This document shows, one piece after another, positions 9,591 through 17,264 of a stretch of DNA of 64,000 nucleotides. Made by a program: the position numbers and the translations under genes. This stretch comes from Limnohabitans sp. MORI2 (lineage in GTDB: Bacteria; Pseudomonadota; Gammaproteobacteria; Burkholderiales; Burkholderiaceae_C). The notes beneath the pieces were generated by a model. The model did not search any database. It saw nothing but the letters and a program-made list of their open reading frames with translations, and was not told the DNA's origin. Location: NCBI RefSeq assembly GCF_027925025.1, contig NZ_AP027058.1, forward strand, positions 1,984,001 to 2,048,000. The letters are read 5' to 3'. Each line of letters begins with the position of its first letter. The stretch's first letter is position 1.

Positions 9591-9602
9591 GGTTTGAGAG
9601 AC

Positions 9603-9631
9603 AAAAAAGCCGCTTCGAGAGCGGCTTTTTT
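9603..9631 (+). terminator. Intrinsic terminator after the ABC importer operon
   Basis: AAAAAAGCCGCT / AGCGGCTTTTTT, a nearly perfect hairpin flanked by A and T runs that could stop transcription in both directions. Confidence 0.92.
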
Positions 9632-9652
9632 ACGTCTTTAATATTCATTAAA

Positions 9653-9775: not shown

Positions 9776-10363
9776 ATGGCGATACCCATGGCATCTTCCA
9801 CAGATCACACCTCCGAGCATCAACACCTCGGCACAACCACCGCAGACAAGCTCTTTATTGCCTTTTTGGTGCTCGTTGTTGCTGCCGTCACCTTATTGGG
9901 TGTCGTCAACTACAAAGAAGCCATCAAGGTTGAAACCTCCAAAAGCAATGGCGAGGCTTGGGTGGCATGGCTGACCGAAACCGGCGCCACACGCTTTGAA
10001 GCTGATACACAACACCCAGCCTGCAAAGGCGGCGTCAAACCAGCGGCCGATGCCAAAGCTGGTACACCCGGCACTTGGGGCGCTTGTTTGACTCACATCT
10101 TGGAAACCACCGAGCTGAAAGATCAAATCAACCCATTCTTCAACGTAGCGCCTCACTTTGTGGCCGCTTGCGATCCCAAAGACCGTACGTTGATGGGCGC
10201 CATCCTGTTAGAAGACTTGATGCCGACACCTCCCGGTTCAGCCACCCCATTCGTGGCCTCTCAACTGGTTGAGACGGATGCCATTGACTACAAGATGCAA
10301 CTGCGTTTGTCCGTATGTGACAAAGGCGGCTATGCCATCAAAGTTGCTGAATTTGAATTCTGA
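9776..10363 (+). CDS. Hypothetical single-span membrane protein at the head of the ion-channel block
   Basis: A 195-residue protein of no family I recognise. It has a polar 25-residue N-terminus and one transmembrane helix at about 26-45 (LFIAFLVLVVAAVTLLGVV). A predicted periplasmic domain of about 145 residues follows, with four cysteines (in PACKGG, GACLTH, AACDPK and SVCDKG) that could form two disulfides. The start could be ATG 9776 or the in-frame ATG 9788/9791 region; no ribosome-binding site settles it. Its stop is 9 bases before the first channel gene, so it is cotranscribed with it. A role as an exported auxiliary or sensor subunit of the channels is inference from position only. 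Confidence 0.7.
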   Translation: MAIPMASSTDHTSEHQHLGTTTADKLFIAFLVLVVAAVTLLGVVNYKEAIKVETSKSNGEAWVAWLTETGATRFEADTQHPACKGGVKPAADAKAGTPGTWGACLTHILETTELKDQINPFFNVAPHFVAACDPKDRTLMGAILLEDLMPTPPGSATPFVASQLVETDAIDYKMQLRLSVCDKGGYAIKVAEFEF

Positions 10364-10371
10364 GGTCTGAC

Positions 10372-12015
10372 ATGAATACCACGACAAAACAAGACAAATT
10401 CCTGGAAGACCTCGACGTCAAATCCATTCTGGGCCAAGACGAAGAAGCCAACATCGACCGCAACTTGCCGATGCGCAAGTGGCTCTACTCTTGGTTGCTG
10501 GATCCAAACATCCCCGGCAACTTCCAAAAAGAACTCGACAAGTGGATCAGCTACTTGATCATCGGTAACTTGTTCAGCCTGATGTTTGAACACGTGCCAG
10601 CGGTGTATGAGCCCTACCGCACCTGGTTTGAGCTGTTCGACATCTTCTCAGTGGCCGTGTTCACCATTGAATACGCCTTGCGCTTGTACCTCGCTCCTGA
10701 AGACGAGGAATTTAAAAACCGCAAGCATGCGCGCTTTAGCTTCGTCACAAGCCCCTTTGCCATCATCGACTTCTTGGCTGTGGCTCCTTTCTACTTGAAA
10801 GCCTTCATTCCAATCGATTTGCGCGTGTTGCGATTCCTGCGACTCTTGCGAATCTTGAAGTTGTTCCGTGTGTTGATTCCAGCGCTGGCTGAATTCAAAG
10901 AGCTCAACAAGAACCGCACCTTCCGTCAAAAAGTGCATGCACTCGTGTTCCCCAGCGAGTACGGCGGCACCATGCAACACATTTTTGAAGTGTTCATTGG
11001 CGTATGGGTGATCTTGTCTGTGATGGCCGTGATCTTGGAATCCGTCAAGAGCATCAACTACATCTTGCATTTGCAATTCGTCATCTTGGACGCCGTGGCT
11101 GTGGCCATTTTCACAGTTGAGTACTGCATGCGCATGTACGCTTGTGTGGAAGAACCTGGCTACAAAGGTGCCTTCTTGGGTCGTTTCCGTCAGGCCAAGA
11201 ATCCATCGACTTTCATCGACTTCTTGGCGATCTTGCCCTTCTTCTTAGAAGTGTTCCTGCATCACCTCATCGACTTGCGCTTCTTGCGAGTGTTCCGTTT
11301 GGCACGATTGCTCAAACTCACACGCGGCAGCGATGCGACCGCCGTGTTGGTCAAAGTGGTGGTGCGCGAGTGGCCAGTGATGGGCGCTGCCACCTTCATC
11401 ATGATGTTGCTGTTGGTCTTGACCGCCAGCTTGGGCTACTTGTTTGAATACGACGCTCAACCTGAGAAGTTCGAGAACATCCCCACCTCTATCTACTGGG
11501 CGGTCATTACCTTGGCCTCTGTGGGTTACGGTGACATTTCACCCGTCACGCCCATGGGCCGTGCCATGACCAGCGTCTTGGCGCTGTTGGGCATTGGTAT
11601 CTTCGCCATCCCTGCTGCGTTGTTGGCTTCTGCCTTCAGCGACGAATTGGTGAAAGAACGTGACCAATTGAAAGCCAACTTGTTTGCCATTTTGAAAGAT
11701 GGCCACATCAGTGAAGCAGAAGCCGCCATCATCCGTGCAGAAGCCAAGCGCCTGCATTTGACGGTGGAAGAAGTGAACAAGCTGATTGAGGTGGTGATCA
11801 AAGAGCACGAGCTCGAAGAGCGCAACCCGCTGCCCATCCACAAGATTGCCGAAAACCCAGCCTTGGCTGTGGAGCATTACAAAGTCCTGTTGGGCCAGAT
11901 TCGTCAACTCGGCGTGCAAGTCGATGCTGCGCAGTTTGACCAAGCAGCTCAACAAGGCGAGCGTCTGTCTGCCAACGAATTTGCCTTGTGGCAAAAAATT
12001 CAAGGTAAGGCTTAA
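10372..12015 (+). CDS. Voltage-gated K+-type channel with two tandem voltage-sensor domains
   Basis: A 547-residue inner-membrane protein. Residues about 57-168 form a first voltage sensor whose S4 (149-168) has arginines every third residue (R151, R154, R157, R160, then K163 and R166). No pore follows. A second sensor spans about 203-318 with S4 residues R303, R306, R309, R312, K315 and R318. It leads into S5, a pore loop with the K+ filter SVGYGD (383-388), and S6. The C-terminus (about 425-547) is cytoplasmic and helical, containing the LKDGHISEAEA segment shared with other channels here. Ordinary bacterial Kv channels have a single sensor, so the sensor-sensor-pore order is unusual. It resembles the gene at 15672. 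K+ selectivity is inferred from the filter. Confidence 0.88.
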   Translation: MNTTTKQDKFLEDLDVKSILGQDEEANIDRNLPMRKWLYSWLLDPNIPGNFQKELDKWISYLIIGNLFSLMFEHVPAVYEPYRTWFELFDIFSVAVFTIEYALRLYLAPEDEEFKNRKHARFSFVTSPFAIIDFLAVAPFYLKAFIPIDLRVLRFLRLLRILKLFRVLIPALAEFKELNKNRTFRQKVHALVFPSEYGGTMQHIFEVFIGVWVILSVMAVILESVKSINYILHLQFVILDAVAVAIFTVEYCMRMYACVEEPGYKGAFLGRFRQAKNPSTFIDFLAILPFFLEVFLHHLIDLRFLRVFRLARLLKLTRGSDATAVLVKVVVREWPVMGAATFIMMLLLVLTASLGYLFEYDAQPEKFENIPTSIYWAVITLASVGYGDISPVTPMGRAMTSVLALLGIGIFAIPAALLASAFSDELVKERDQLKANLFAILKDGHISEAEAAIIRAEAKRLHLTVEEVNKLIEVVIKEHELEERNPLPIHKIAENPALAVEHYKVLLGQIRQLGVQVDAAQFDQAAQQGERLSANEFALWQKIQGKA

Positions 12016-12025
12016 GCCCCAAACA

Positions 12026-12057
12026 AAGCGGCCACGCTTGACTGTGTGGCCGCTTTT
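12026..12057 (+). terminator. Intrinsic terminator after the first channel gene
   Basis: AAGCGGCCAC / GTGGCCGCTT stem with a 10-base loop followed by TT. The short T run may allow partial read-through into the next channel gene. Confidence 0.75.
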
Positions 12058-12100
12058 CTATTCCAACACGACCTACCTTCCCATTCGTTAGACCCTCGCA

Positions 12101-13012
12101 ATGACTACAGGTTTTAAAAACACCCTGATGGAAATACTGGACGGCTCGCCCAAACATACGGCGAGCCGATACGTGGAGTGGCTCATCACCCTTGTGGTGC
12201 TGGTGAACTGCTCGGCGGTGATTCTTGATTCCGTTCCAGAAATTCACGCTGAATTCAAAGACTTCTTCCACGAGTTGGAGTTTTGGAGCGTGATGTTCTT
12301 TACCGTGGAATACATCGCACGCGTGTGGTCTTTGGGCGCCAAATACAGCCGAGAAAACGGTGGCGCATGGAAGGGACGTTTCGAATACATGTTCAGTGCA
12401 TTTGGCTTGGTGGACTTTTTTGCCACCATGCCTCACTACATGCACATGTTCTTCCCGACGCTCGATTTGCGTATCTTGCGTGTGCTGCGACTGCTGCGAA
12501 TTTTGAAGCTCTCCAAGTACAACACAGCGCTGCAAGACTTGTTTCACGCCATCCACTCAGAGCGTCAAGCGTTTGGCTCTGCTGTGTTTTTGCTGACCAT
12601 CGCCACCATTGTGTCGGCCTCTTTGATGCACTTTGCAGAAGGCCACCATCAGCCCGAGTTTTTCGGCACGATTCCTCACTCGATCTACTGGTCGATCGTG
12701 ACCATCACTTCCGGCTATGGCAACGTCGAACCGATGACCAAAGCGGGCGAAGCCATCGCACTGATCACCGGCTTCTTGGGCGTGTGTATGGCCGCCATCA
12801 TGACCGGTATCGTGGCCTCAGCGTTCTCCAACCAAGTGGCACGCAAGAAAGCCGCGTTTGAGGCTCAACTGCGCGAAGTCTTCAAAGACGGCAATATGTC
12901 CGAAGAAGAGCAAGAAACATTGAAGCGTTTGCAAGCGCACTACCGCCTGTCAGATGAACAAGTCGAAGCCATGATGCTTCGCGCCAAAAACAAATCGTCC
13001 GCCAAGGACTGA
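12101..13012 (+). CDS. Voltage-gated ion channel with non-canonical TSGYGN filter
   Basis: A 303-residue six-helix channel of the voltage-gated superfamily. S1 starts near residue 24. S4 (122-138) carries R124, R127, R130, R133 and K136. The pore loop reads TITSGYGN (201-208) where K+ channels have T-V-G-Y-G-D. Compared with its neighbours (TLASVGYGD) it is one residue shorter, with Ser in the Val position and Asn for Asp. After S6 comes a cytoplasmic tail with FKDGNMSEEEQ and LSDEQVEAM, shared with the other channels. Seven bases separate it from the next channel. It is probably a cation channel; the altered filter makes K+ selectivity doubtful. Confidence 0.85.
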   Translation: MTTGFKNTLMEILDGSPKHTASRYVEWLITLVVLVNCSAVILDSVPEIHAEFKDFFHELEFWSVMFFTVEYIARVWSLGAKYSRENGGAWKGRFEYMFSAFGLVDFFATMPHYMHMFFPTLDLRILRVLRLLRILKLSKYNTALQDLFHAIHSERQAFGSAVFLLTIATIVSASLMHFAEGHHQPEFFGTIPHSIYWSIVTITSGYGNVEPMTKAGEAIALITGFLGVCMAAIMTGIVASAFSNQVARKKAAFEAQLREVFKDGNMSEEEQETLKRLQAHYRLSDEQVEAMMLRAKNKSSAKD

Positions 13013-13019
13013 GCGAACC

Positions 13020-13976
13020 ATGACCACAGCAGTTCCGACCCCCTCTACCTACCAGCGCATCAAGCGCCGCACCTTCGAAATCATGGAAGGTGAAGTACCG
13101 GACAAGTACAGCAACTTCGTCGAAATCTTCATCGCCTTGCTGGTGGTGGCCAACGTGATTGGCATCATCTTGGAATCAGTCCCTGAGATCCACGACGCTT
13201 TAGAACACGAGTTCCATTTGTTTGACATGTTCAGCGTGGCTGTCTTCTCGATTGAGTTCGTCATGCGCGTTTGGTCGTACAGCGAAAAGTACATTCACAG
13301 CGGTGGCACCGCATGGGATGGCCGCAAAGAATATGTGTTTAGCTTCTACGGCATCATCGACTTTGTGAGCACTGTGCCGTTTTACTTGCAGTTGATCTTC
13401 CCTGGCGCTGACTTGCGCGTGCTTCGGATGTTCCGTTTGATGCGGATTTTCAAACTCTCACGCTACAACAGCGCGTTTGAAGACATGGTGGCAGCGGTTA
13501 AAGCCGAGAAAGATTCTTTCTCCTCTGCGGTGTTCTTGCTGTTCATCAGTTGCTTGCTGTTCTCTTCGCTGATTTACATCATCGAAGGCCATGAGCAGCC
13601 TGAAGTATTCCCCTCTATTCCGGCCGCGATGCACTGGTTTGTCATCACCATCATCTCTGGCTGGGGCAACGTGGACCCTGTCACTTTCGTGGGCACGATC
13701 TTGGTGATCTTCACGCAAATTTTGTCCATCGCTTTGGCCGCCATCCTGACCGGTGTGGTGGCTACTGCTTACACGGCGCAAGTTGAGCGACGTCAAGCTT
13801 TGTATGAAATGGAAGTGCGAAACGTGCTCGCCGACGGTGTTGTGACCGAAGAAGAGCAAGCACAACTTAAAATCATGCAAGCCAAACTTGGCATGTCTGA
13901 TGAACAAGTCGAAGCCATCAAACACCAAATGGAAGAAGAGAAGCAAATCTCTGACGCCAATAAACAAGTTAAATAA
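13020..13976 (+). CDS. Voltage-gated ion channel with ISGWGN filter
   Basis: A 318-residue channel closely related to the preceding one. S4 (131-148) has R133, R136, R139, R142, K145 and R148. The pore sequence is TIISGWGNVDP, with ISGWGN at 212-217, so the filter tyrosine is replaced by tryptophan and the aspartate by asparagine. The tail carries LADGVVTEEEQ and MSDEQVEAIK, matching the motif in the neighbouring channel, and ends in a charged EEEKQ segment. The two channels lie seven bases apart and may form heteromers. Ion selectivity cannot be assigned from sequence. Confidence 0.85.
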   Translation: MTTAVPTPSTYQRIKRRTFEIMEGEVPDKYSNFVEIFIALLVVANVIGIILESVPEIHDALEHEFHLFDMFSVAVFSIEFVMRVWSYSEKYIHSGGTAWDGRKEYVFSFYGIIDFVSTVPFYLQLIFPGADLRVLRMFRLMRIFKLSRYNSAFEDMVAAVKAEKDSFSSAVFLLFISCLLFSSLIYIIEGHEQPEVFPSIPAAMHWFVITIISGWGNVDPVTFVGTILVIFTQILSIALAAILTGVVATAYTAQVERRQALYEMEVRNVLADGVVTEEEQAQLKIMQAKLGMSDEQVEAIKHQMEEEKQISDANKQVK

Positions 13977-13994
13977 CTCAGCAGAGGTGACCCT

Positions 13995-14207
13995 ATGGAC
14001 AACGGCGCATACGAAAAATACAAGCAAGAGAATCCAGACGTTTACACACCTCTGTCGACCTATGACTACCTCGACAAGTTTGTGCACCAACTCACCAATA
14101 CAGAACTGGTCGTATGCGGCGTAGCGATTGCTTTAGCGATCATCGCCATTTACAAAATCTTCACACGCAACAAAGACAAGCAATCTGAAGATCATCACGA
14201 CGAATAA
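13995..14207 (+). CDS. Small single-span membrane protein in the channel block
   Basis: A 70-residue protein with a polar, tyrosine-rich N-terminal half, one transmembrane helix at about 36-54 (LVVCGVAIALAIIAIYKIF) and a charged tail ending in DHHDE. The start is preceded by AGAGGTGACCCT. It lies 18 bases after one channel and 12 bases before the DUF4337-like gene. No family is recognised. Its shape is that of a small channel-accessory subunit, which is inference from size and position. Confidence 0.7.
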   Translation: MDNGAYEKYKQENPDVYTPLSTYDYLDKFVHQLTNTELVVCGVAIALAIIAIYKIFTRNKDKQSEDHHDE

Positions 14208-14219
14208 CAAGGAAGAACC

Positions 14220-14792
14220 ATGAGTGAAGTTCCAGAAACTGAATTACCAGAACACGGCAACGATCCATTCCGCACGCGCTGCGCCATGCTGGTGTCGTGC
14301 TTGGCCATGTGCTTGGCCATTGCCAGCTTGGGCGGCAACAATGCCTCTAAAGAGAGCATGAGCAACAACATCTTGGCCTCTAACGCGTATGCGTTCTATC
14401 AAGCCAAGAACATTCGCCAGACCGATTACAAAATCGCTGCTGATGAATTGCGCATTCAAATCGCCAACGACAAGCTATCTTCTGCCGCCAAACAAATGGC
14501 AGAGAAAAAACTCGAAGCTTATGAAAAGAACATCGCTCGCTATGAGTCAGAGCCAGAAACGGGCGATGGCAAAAAAGAGCTGATGGAAAAAGCCAAAGCG
14601 CACGAGCACGAGCGTGATATCGCTTTGCGCCAAGACCCTTGGTTTGACTATGCAGAAGCGTTGCTACAAATCGCCATTGTGTTGACTTCGGTGGCCATCC
14701 TCACCGGCGCACATGTGCTGTTCTGGGTACCTTGTGCCTTGGGAGCTTTAGGCATCCTCTCGACCATCAACGGTTTTATGCTTTTCATCTAA
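14220..14792 (+). CDS. DUF4337-like membrane protein
   Basis: A 190-residue protein with the layout of the DUF4337 family: a short acidic N-terminus and a first helix at about 21-40 (CAMLVSCLAMCLAIASLGG). The conserved stretch NNASKESMSNNILASNAYAF follows, continuing in QAKNIRQTDYK. Then comes a long charged helical region (about 75-145), and two closing helices occupy the last 45 residues. The start follows AAGGAAGAACC. DUF4337 function is unknown. Its place among channel genes suggests a shared membrane complex or regulation. Confidence 0.8.
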   Translation: MSEVPETELPEHGNDPFRTRCAMLVSCLAMCLAIASLGGNNASKESMSNNILASNAYAFYQAKNIRQTDYKIAADELRIQIANDKLSSAAKQMAEKKLEAYEKNIARYESEPETGDGKKELMEKAKAHEHERDIALRQDPWFDYAEALLQIAIVLTSVAILTGAHVLFWVPCALGALGILSTINGFMLFI

Positions 14793-14830
14793 GCATAAAA
14801 ATCATCAAAGCCCCGCAAGGGGCTTTTTTG
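14774..14830 (+). terminator. Double hairpin terminator after the DUF4337-like gene
   Basis: TTTTATGCTT (14774-14783) and AAGCATAAAA (14791-14800) form a perfect 10-base inverted repeat across the stop codon. It is followed by AAAGCCCC / GGGGCTTTTTT (14808-14830), a standard rho-independent terminator. The sodium channel gene starts 30 bases further on. Confidence 0.85.
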
Positions 14831-14859
14831 TCACGTTCACTCTGATCCATTTCTTAGCA

Positions 14860-15675
14860 ATGCAAAGCACTTCTTCGGCAACACCTTGGCGTGAACGAAT
14901 TGAGCAATTCATCACGCACCGCACAATTCAAAGTTTTTTAGTTTTCCTCATCGTCGTCAACGCGGCCATTTTGGGCATTGAAACCAACCACGATGTGATG
15001 GACGTATGGGGCCATGAGTTGTTCTTGCTCGATCACATCATCTTGGGCATTTTCATTTTAGAAATCGTGTTGCTCATGGCTGCACGTGGCTTCTCTTTTT
15101 TCAAAGATGCTTGGTCCGTGTTTGACTTCATCGTCGTTGGCATTGCCTTGGTGCCTGCTTCTGGCTCCTTGTCTGTGTTGCGTGCGCTGCGCGTGTTACG
15201 GGTGCTGCGCCTCATCAACAAAGTCGAGAGCATGCGAAAAGTCGTGGGTGGCTTGCTCAGCTCACTGCCAGGCTTGGGCTCGGTGTTCGGCCTGATCATG
15301 ATCATCTTCTATGTGGCATCGGTCATTGCCACCAACCTGTATCACAAAGATTTTCCAGACTGGTTTGGCAGCCTAACCACCAGTGCCTTCACCTTATTCC
15401 AAGTGATGACGCTTGAGAGCTGGGCAGATGGCATTGCACGACCAGTGATGGAGGTGTTCCCCTATTCTTGGGTCTTCTTCATTTTGTTCATTTTGATCGC
15501 CACCTTCATCATCTTCAACTTGTTCATTGCCGTGATCGTGGATTCCATCACTGCAGACAAAGACAAAGACCATCGCGATCACCACCACCAACTCAGCGTG
15601 CAAGAAGAGTTACAAGCGCTTCGCCAAGAAATGGCAGAGCTGCGTCAATTACTGATTGAAAAGAACACACGATGA
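14860..15675 (+). CDS. NaChBac-type voltage-gated sodium channel
   Basis: A 271-residue channel of the bacterial single-domain Nav family. S4 (about 104-120) carries R108, R111, R114 and R117 in LRALRVLRVLRL. The selectivity filter TLESWAD (184-190) has the ring-forming glutamate E186 and matches the TLESW hallmark of NaChBac/NavAb. S6 (about 203-228) contains FNLFIAVIVD. The tail has a His/Asp-rich stretch (DHRDHHHQ) and then a short coiled coil (245-268), as in known bacterial Nav channels where it assembles the tetramer. The stop overlaps the next start (ATGA at 15672), coupling it to a K+-type channel. Confidence 0.93.
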   Translation: MQSTSSATPWRERIEQFITHRTIQSFLVFLIVVNAAILGIETNHDVMDVWGHELFLLDHIILGIFILEIVLLMAARGFSFFKDAWSVFDFIVVGIALVPASGSLSVLRALRVLRVLRLINKVESMRKVVGGLLSSLPGLGSVFGLIMIIFYVASVIATNLYHKDFPDWFGSLTTSAFTLFQVMTLESWADGIARPVMEVFPYSWVFFILFILIATFIIFNLFIAVIVDSITADKDKDHRDHHHQLSVQEELQALRQEMAELRQLLIEKNTR

Positions 15676-17264
15676 CCACCCATCACACATCGCCACTCGC
15701 CAGCTTTTACAAATGGGTGTTTGACCCAGAGTTCAAGCACGGCTTCCAACGTCAAGTTGAACGCACCATCGCGTTCTTGATCGTGGCGAGTGTGATTGCG
15801 GTATTGCTCGAGAACACACCTGAAATTTACAACGACTACAAGCATTGGTTTCATTGGTTTGATGTTCTCACCGTCGGTATCTTCACGGCTGAATATGTCA
15901 TGCGGGTAGCCACTGCTCATCTCAATCCTGAGTTTGCAAATAAAAACTTTCCACGTTTGCGATATACCTTCAGTTTTTACGCACTGATCGACTTGATTGC
16001 CATCGCACCGTTTTACTTCGCACGCTTTGTCGATGTCGATGTGGAAATGTTGCGTGTCTTGCGAATCATGCGACTGGCGCGAATGTTCAAACTCTCACGC
16101 CAAATCATTCCTGCATGGCACGAGTTTCAAGAACTGAACCAAGGGCGCAGTTTCCGAGCCAAGGTCTATGCGATGCTGGAACCCACCGGCCACTCTGGCC
16201 GCCTGCACACCTACATCGACAATTTCATTGTGTTTTGGATTGCGTTGTCGATCATCTGTGTTGTGTTCGAAACCGTTGAATCTGTACGCGCCTTATTTGC
16301 CACCGAATTCGCCGTCATTGACGTGATCGCATTCAGCGTTTTCACTGTGGAATACATCGCTCGTGTTTACTGTGCCCCTGAAAACCCAAAGTACAAGCAC
16401 CTGAGCATGCCGCATTGGTCGCACATGCGGTCTGGCCAAGCCGTCATTGATCTGCTGACCATCTTGCCTTTCATCTTAGAGAGCTTCTTTAGCCAACACA
16501 TCGATTTGCGTTTCTTGCGTGTCTTCCGCTTGATGCGCATGCTCAAGCTCACACGCTACACCTCTGCGATGGAAACGCTCTACAAAGTCGTGTTACGCGA
16601 ATGGCAGGTCATCTTCGCGTCGGTCTTTGTGATGATGTTGTTGGTGGTTCTGACTGCTAGCTTGGGCTATTTGTTTGAACACACAGCACAACCCGATAAG
16701 TTTGAAAACATTCCTCAATCCATTTACTGGGCTGTGGTCACTCTGGCTTCTGTGGGCTATGGCGACATCTCACCCATCACGCCCATGGGCCGCGCACTCA
16801 CCGTGGTGTTGGCGCTGGTAGGCATCGGCATTTTCGCCATCCCCGCTGGTCTGTTGGCGTCTGCATTCACCGACCAACTCCGCATTGACCGCGATGCTTT
16901 CAAGCAACGTCTGATGCTGGCTTACGAAGACGGCATGCTCGACAACGCTGAGCGCGAATTGATCGTGGCAGAGTCTGAACGTTTGCACTTGTCACATGAA
17001 GAAGTCAAACGCCTGACTGAAGAGGCACGCGCAGAATTCGCCGCCAAAGAAGTAGAAGATCAAACACGCGCCAACGGTTTAGTCTTGGATGCCAAAGCAC
17101 ACCCTGCATTGGCCAGTGCTCAGTTCAAATTACTGGTGGATCAGTTGGCACTCATTACACAAGCAGCAGGGGAAGATGCCTTGCGCAAACATCTCAAACA
17201 GATACCCACCGAACATCAGATCGAACTGGATGTCTTGGCCCTTGTGTCAAAGCGAACGCTTTAG
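15672..17264 (+). CDS. Second K+-type channel with two tandem voltage-sensor domains
   Basis: A 530-residue paralogue of the channel at 10372 with the same sensor-sensor-pore order. The first S4 (126-143) has R128, R131, R134, R137, K140 and R143; no pore follows. The second S4 (278-295) has R280, R283, R286, R289, K292 and R295 and leads to filter SVGYGD (360-365). The pore-flanking segments are nearly identical to those of the paralogue (ASLGYLFEHTAQPDKFENIP). The tail contains YEDGMLDNAERE and LSHEEVKRL, the shared cytoplasmic motif, then a further region of about 75 residues. It is translationally coupled to the sodium channel gene, which argues for matched amounts of the two channels. 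Confidence 0.88.
   Translation: MTTHHTSPLASFYKWVFDPEFKHGFQRQVERTIAFLIVASVIAVLLENTPEIYNDYKHWFHWFDVLTVGIFTAEYVMRVATAHLNPEFANKNFPRLRYTFSFYALIDLIAIAPFYFARFVDVDVEMLRVLRIMRLARMFKLSRQIIPAWHEFQELNQGRSFRAKVYAMLEPTGHSGRLHTYIDNFIVFWIALSIICVVFETVESVRALFATEFAVIDVIAFSVFTVEYIARVYCAPENPKYKHLSMPHWSHMRSGQAVIDLLTILPFILESFFSQHIDLRFLRVFRLMRMLKLTRYTSAMETLYKVVLREWQVIFASVFVMMLLVVLTASLGYLFEHTAQPDKFENIPQSIYWAVVTLASVGYGDISPITPMGRALTVVLALVGIGIFAIPAGLLASAFTDQLRIDRDAFKQRLMLAYEDGMLDNAERELIVAESERLHLSHEEVKRLTEEARAEFAAKEVEDQTRANGLVLDAKAHPALASAQFKLLVDQLALITQAAGEDALRKHLKQIPTEHQIELDVLALVSKRTL

What the first reader, a model, noticed from the sequence alone, without database searches (positions are those of the whole stretch)
9776..17264. 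Eight-gene block with five voltage-gated channels, including a sodium channel and K+-type channels
Seen directly: five consecutive proteins carry S4 segments with arginine every third residue. Two have SVGYGD filters, one has TLESWAD (Nav type), and two have altered filters. Small membrane proteins and a DUF4337-like protein are interspersed, with gaps of 7-30 bases or overlaps. Bacteria usually carry single, scattered channel genes. Having depolarising Na+ and repolarising K+ channels in one block raises the possibility of a dedicated electrical-signalling or ion-homeostasis module. Excitability itself is inference.
Basis: partly seen in the sequence, partly recalled or inferred. Interest (0 to 1): 0.92.

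Follow-up and report, generated by a model that had tools for sequence, protein, structure and literature searches.

The report
Potassium channels with doubled voltage sensors
A freshwater bacterium carries five voltage-gated ion channel genes side by side, and two of them encode an unusual potassium channel with two complete voltage sensors per pore subunit, one of which is paired with a small unknown membrane protein that may be its helper.

Summary
The eight genes and five channels are real. In 241 listed relatives the gating residues of both VSDs are kept in all, except that 19 have a gap at one VSD1 S4 arginine. VSD1s and VSD2s form separate clades. A single-pass protein with four invariant cysteines (A, 9776-10363) lies directly upstream of B. 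In samples of 200 family and 398 phylum genomes, A occurs in 4 and 2: the same genomes that hold a tandem channel. In 61 genus genomes, 49 of 51 A genes abut a B gene; the other two stop at contig ends. I propose a Kv-like channel with a doubled sensor and A as its subunit. The "Na+/K+ excitability module" is only partly supported: terminator-like hairpins split the block into AB/CDEF/GH, and a sodium channel is near a tandem channel in 7 of the 32 genus genomes that have one. Ten library searches found no such channel described. Function is untested.

The parts
9776..10363 (+). A: 195 aa single-pass membrane protein (TM about 26-44) with a small ectodomain and four invariant Cys; proposed auxiliary subunit of B (start may be 9788)
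   Evidence: ORF; no Pfam/NCBIfam/PHROG match; invariant F27 G42 W65 C83 W101 C104 C132 G141 P152 G154 C181 G184 in 36 sequences; model pLDDT 91.5; TM by hydropathy; found only in genomes with a tandem-VSD channel in two samples
10372..12015 (+). B: 547 aa tandem-VSD K+ channel (VSD1-VSD2-pore-helical C-terminus)
   Evidence: two Ion_trans stretches; alignment; model; 241 of 241 listed relatives have two S4 motifs
10525..10905 (+). B VSD1 (residues 52-178): S4 RVLRFLRLLRILKLFR, S2 F97/E100, S3 D133
10966..11322 (+). B VSD2 (residues 199-317): S4 RFLRVFRLARLLKLTR, S2 F247/E250, S3 D283
11371..11700 (+). B pore domain S5-pore helix-S6 (residues 334-443), filter TLASVGYGD
   Evidence: alignment with Kv4.2/Kv2.1/KCNQ
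12025..12056 (+). Intrinsic-terminator-like hairpin after B
   Evidence: dG -24.7, z -6.63, then TTTTCT
12101..13012 (+). C: 303 aa single-VSD channel, filter ITSGYGN (12704-12724)
   Evidence: PF00520 5e-28; T[S/A]G[Y/F/W]G in 34 of 34 distinct C-type ORFs
13020..13976 (+). D: 318 aa single-VSD channel, filter IISGWGN (13650-13670)
   Evidence: PF00520 4e-25; [I/V][S/A]GWG in 34 of 34 distinct D-type ORFs
13995..14207 (+). E: 70 aa single-pass protein, no family over a cut-off
14220..14792 (+). F: DUF4337 protein, two hydrophobic segments
   Evidence: PF14235 7e-46
14807..14826 (+). Intrinsic-terminator-like hairpin after F
   Evidence: dG -15.0, z -4.45, then T run
14860..15675 (+). G: 271 aa BacNav-type sodium channel, filter TLESWAD (15409-15429)
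   Evidence: best solved relatives at E 3e-71 to 1e-67, among them 3rvy/3rw0, which PMC4565861 lists as NavAb
15672..17264 (+). H: 530 aa tandem-VSD K+ channel, 48% identical to B over B residues 37-512; start overlaps stop of G by 4 bases

Best explanation
B and H are voltage-gated K+ channels of an architecture that I found described nowhere. Each subunit has two complete Shaker-like voltage-sensor domains in a row and then one pore. VSD2 connects to the pore through a normal S4-S5 linker. VSD1 is an extra sensor at the N-terminus whose long S4 runs into the pre-S1 helix of VSD2. A tetramer would therefore carry eight sensors around one K+ pore. I infer that VSD1 senses the same field and biases or steepens opening through VSD2, so that the channel works as a sharp K+ efflux valve on depolarisation. 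Protein A is inferred to be a dedicated single-pass auxiliary subunit of the B-type channel. C and D are accessory single-VSD channels with conserved but altered filters, of unknown selectivity. G is an optional BacNav whose gene overlaps that of H in this clade. Shown: architecture by sequence and model, residue conservation, A-B linkage; supported: single origin of the doubling. Inferred: K+ conduction, tetramer with eight sensors, depolarisation gating, VSD1 function, A-B binding, physiology.
Against: No functional data. H-type channels and the second B copies in L118-L120 have no A, so A is not needed by every tandem channel. Single-VSD relatives with the same C-terminus exist (L129, L130, L132), so VSD1 is dispensable in some channels. 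The AlphaFold model is a monomer, pTM 0.65, with mean pLDDT 48-64 in residues 361-420 around the filter, so the VSD1-pore arrangement is not known. The tree program warns that long branches meet (H VSD1 among them). Each protein search listed only its best 120 hits, so distant members that lost charges could be missed.
Confidence: 0.62

Rival explanations
1. Dedicated electrical-signalling module: the BacNav depolarises and the tandem-VSD K+ channels repolarise, so that the cell produces regenerative voltage pulses.
For: G and H overlap by 4 bases; BacNav immediately upstream of H in 6 named loci; independent BacNav-H'-BacNav run in G250; five channel genes in 7.5 kb against 0-2 Ion_trans matches in the 148 sampled family genomes of other handles than G000 and G080.
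Against: No BacNav at E 1e-30 in 29 of 61 genus genomes, and one near a tandem channel in 7 of the 32 that have it. G080, G246 and G245 keep the other parts without G. Terminator-like hairpins between AB, CDEF and GH. In PMC4225499 (passages) bacterial Nav is tied to motility and pH homeostasis.
Confidence: 0.1
2. VSD1 is not a sensor for this pore but an assembly or membrane-anchoring domain, or an independent conduction path (proton or cation) fused to a normal Kv channel.
For: Single-VSD relatives with the same C-terminus occur (L129, L130, L132). In the model VSD1 has no direct S4-S5 linker to the pore.
Against: The S4 charges and charge-transfer residues of VSD1 are retained in the 241 listed relatives apart from 19 gaps at one position, which a pure anchor would not need; VSD1 is conserved nearly as well as VSD2 (71 against 73% mean identity to B).
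Confidence: 0.2
3. Ordinary ion-homeostasis set: a collection of Kv-type safety valves and a Na+ entry channel that accumulated by duplication in one genomic hotspot.
For: C-D and B-H are related pairs (C-D 45% in the VSD and 44% in the pore; B-H 48%); extra divergent Kv gene between F and G in relatives; composition of the block varies.
Against: Does not explain the tandem VSD or the A-B pairing.
Confidence: 0.3

Closest known systems
Kv channels (Kv4.2, Kv2.1, KCNQ; e.g. chains 7uk5, 8sd3, 9j38)
   Different: Kv subunits have six TM helices and one VSD (PMC4565861, passages); B and H have a second complete VSD in front
Two-pore channels (TPC)
   Same: Two VSDs in one chain (two six-TM repeats; PMC8665364, start of abstract in a search listing)
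   Different: TPC order is VSD-pore-VSD-pore; here VSD-VSD-pore. No TPC is among the 50 rows listed
BK channels (6+1 TM in PMC4565861, passages)
   Same: K+ channel with an extra membrane segment
   Different: One extra helix (recalled as N-terminal S0), not a whole VSD
NavAb/NavMs-type BacNav
   Same: G: near whole-length match at E 3e-71 to 1e-67, TLESW filter
   Different: Nothing notable except its overlap with H
KCNE / Nav beta single-pass auxiliary subunits
   Same: A is a single-pass protein paired with a voltage-gated channel gene (analogy only)

Membership tests
Voltage-gated K+ channel superfamily (B, H) | VSD with S4 charges at every third residue and charge-transfer residues | tested here: met
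   twice per protein in B, H and 241 listed relatives
Voltage-gated K+ channel superfamily (B, H) | Pore domain with T/S-V-G-Y-G filter | tested here: met
   GYGD in 53 of 56 B-type ORFs (3 are cut before it) and 22 of 22 H-type ORFs, three of these single-VSD relatives
Voltage-gated K+ channel superfamily (B, H) | One VSD per pore, six TM helices | tested here: not met
   two VSDs, about ten TM helices
Voltage-gated K+ channel superfamily (B, H) | K+-selective, voltage-dependent current | not testable with these tools
   needs electrophysiology
Two-pore channel (TPC) | Two pore domains per chain | tested here: not met
   one pore domain (Ion_trans_2 once in each)
BacNav (G) | Single-domain 6-TM chain related to NavAb/NavMs with TLESW filter | tested here: met
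   TLESWAD in sequence
K+ channel (C, D) | Canonical TVGYG filter | tested here: not met
   TSGYGN and ISGWGN types, conserved in 34 of 34 ORFs each
Auxiliary channel subunit (A) | Physical association with the channel | not testable with these tools
   only linkage and co-occurrence
Type IV pilin fold (A) | Long N-terminal helix plus antiparallel sheet, clear match to a pilin | tested here: inconclusive

The most novel reading that the evidence does not exclude
B and H form tetramers with eight working voltage sensors around one K+ pore, an unusually steep or two-threshold voltage switch, with A as a dedicated subunit; in this clade H is co-translated with a BacNav so that the pair makes a true depolarise-repolarise cycle in a planktonic bacterium.
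Probability: 0.1. Interest if true: 0.96.

Novelty: new variant of a known kind. Interest (0 to 1): 0.76.

Why it matters
Every Kv channel that I know of has one voltage sensor per pore subunit, and how gating charge sets steepness is a central question of channel biophysics. A natural, common bacterial family with a second intact sensor makes that question directly testable: one can silence either sensor and measure charge, slope and threshold. Partner A would be, to my knowledge, a rare dedicated auxiliary subunit of a prokaryotic Kv channel. Where a source names these proteins in the listings, it is mostly as 'voltage-gated potassium channel (Kch)' or 'hypothetical protein'.

Full report
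What is there. The window lies in a 2.65 Mb single-contig genome; among the 29 named loci the closest B (98%) is in Limnohabitans sp. Jir61. Eight + strand genes A-H run from 9776 to 17264, between an ABC-transporter permease gene and a flavin reductase gene. A terminator-like hairpin precedes A within 9598-9640. B, C, D, G and H match Ion_trans PF00520; F is DUF4337; A matches nothing and E nothing over a cut-off.

Both sensors are kept. The set is 241 proteins: the 120 listed by each of two searches and the query P0121. The S2 Phe and Glu, S3 Asp and S4 charges are retained in both VSDs in all of them, except that the fourth S4 charge of VSD1 falls in a gap in 19 and is present in the other 222. 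Mean identity to B is 71% for VSD1, 73% for VSD2, 80% for the pore and 56% for the C-terminus. Only the best 120 hits of each search are listed, so the set is biased to close members. In a tree of 89 VSDs, VSD1s form one clade (35 rows, 100/100) and VSD2s another (38 rows, 100/99), which includes three single-VSD relatives (L129, L130, L132). B and H also agree like with like: VSD1-VSD1 40%, VSD2-VSD2 43%, crosses 34-36%. The simplest reading is one doubling before B, H and the alphaproteobacterial proteins split. The tree program warns of long branches, H VSD1 among them, and the source of the extra VSD is unresolved.

Partner A. A is a single-pass protein whose model has a 51-residue helix followed by a small sheet domain (pLDDT 91.5), with 12 invariant columns in 36 sequences including C83, C104, C132 and C181. 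In 61 genus genomes A has 51 substantial matches in 49 genomes (one further 25-residue match in G212 not counted). Comparing coordinates, 49 lie within 100 bases upstream of a B match; the other 2 (G221, G256) stop at contig ends. In 200 family genomes A is found in 4, and in 398 phylum genomes in 2: the same genomes that hold a tandem channel (G000, G080, G184, G177; G000, G629; one search used a cut-off of 1e-35). In G177 both genes are broken into several frames; single stops also lie in A or B copies of G205 and in B of G216. Results against a strict rule: H-type genes and the second B copies of L118-L120 have no A. The 12 genus genomes without A show H, single-VSD relatives, partial B matches or only weak matches.

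How conserved is the block. Of 29 named loci, A precedes B in 28 (L052 starts at B), C-D follow in 20, and all eight families in order occur in 6; L056 is cut after G by its contig end. Those six also have a divergent reverse-strand Kv gene between F and G (filter TTTGYGD in the five that I translated). In L054 the flavin reductase gene follows D directly. Four Rhizobiales/Beijerinckiaceae loci (L075-L078) show A-B and none of the other families. G080 and G246 have A-F and H without G, and so does G245 from inside B onward. BacNav is found at E 1e-30 in 32 of 61 genus genomes and lies near a tandem channel in 7: G000, G184, G208, G239, G217, G236, G250. G250 has BacNav, a divergent tandem channel, BacNav in one run (L128). 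So Na+/K+ linkage occurs in several arrangements but is not a fixed unit. Many of these genomes are fragmented, so linkage counts are lower bounds.

Transcription. The 85-base B-C gap and the 67-base F-G gap hold hairpins with T tails (-24.7 and -15.0 kcal/mol; no shuffle of 200 folds as well). G and H overlap by 4 bases. I read three units: AB, CDEF, GH. The promoter scan found 1 site against a shuffled mean of 5.4, and 13 terminator-like sites against 12.2, so simple pattern scans do not resolve the units; the hairpin energies are the evidence.

How it probably works. VSD2 drives the pore as in Kv channels. VSD1 has the residues that a sensor needs, and its S4 is a long helix that leads towards the pre-S1 helix of VSD2 (184-192), so its movement could bias VSD2. 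With four subunits this gives eight sensors; the expected result is steeper or two-threshold opening. This is inference. In a freshwater bacterium with a strongly negative membrane potential the likely role is K+ efflux on depolarisation, to restore potential or turgor. PMC4225499 (passages) says that bacterial Nav channels presumably supply Na+ for flagellar stators and ion homeostasis and that the opening stimulus is unclear; this fits an optional role for G.

Filters of C and D. In an alignment-based recount C keeps T[S/A]G[Y/F/W]G in 34 of 34 distinct ORFs and D keeps [I/V][S/A]GWG in 34 of 34. They are conserved, not decayed; their selectivity cannot be predicted here.

Compared with what is known. 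A review of K+ channel structures lists 2, 4, 6 and 6+1 TM types (PMC4565861, passages). A 2024 review on voltage sensors has no occurrence of 'tandem', 'two VSD' or 'duplicat' (PMC13095418, term search and passages). Two-pore channels have two six-TM repeats in one chain (PMC8665364, abstract start in listing), a different order. Ten searches in the held library gave no VSD-VSD-pore channel. Where sources name these proteins it is mostly 'voltage-gated potassium channel (Kch)' or hypothetical. I rate it a new variant of a known kind.

Noticed in passing
L062:14472-15515 and L050, L053, L055, L057, L058, L071: Close relatives carry a further divergent reverse-strand Kv-type gene (filter TTTGYGD in the five translated) between F and G or F and H that is absent from the window; a 363-bit relative lies at G000:C1:43313-44056.
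   Followed up: partly
L152/L153 (G248), L154 (G211), L155 (G218), L162 (G226): Two or three BacNav genes within about 20 kb in several genus genomes, away from the K+ channel block.
   Followed up: partly
L128:5632-9657: G250: a Kv channel gene, then BacNav - divergent tandem-VSD channel - BacNav; both BacNavs have a TGDGWSD filter instead of TLESW.
   Followed up: partly
L075-L078, upstream gene of B: In Beijerinckiaceae/Rhizobiales the open frame of A is about 280 residues, with an extra N-terminal stretch of roughly 80 residues.
   Followed up: no
L126:2547-5803: Two tandem-VSD channel genes in a row (G218; one search shows a similar pair in G248).
   Followed up: no
L131:6396-8880: G177 (another genus of the family) has A and B broken into several frames: pseudogenes or sequencing errors.
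   Followed up: partly
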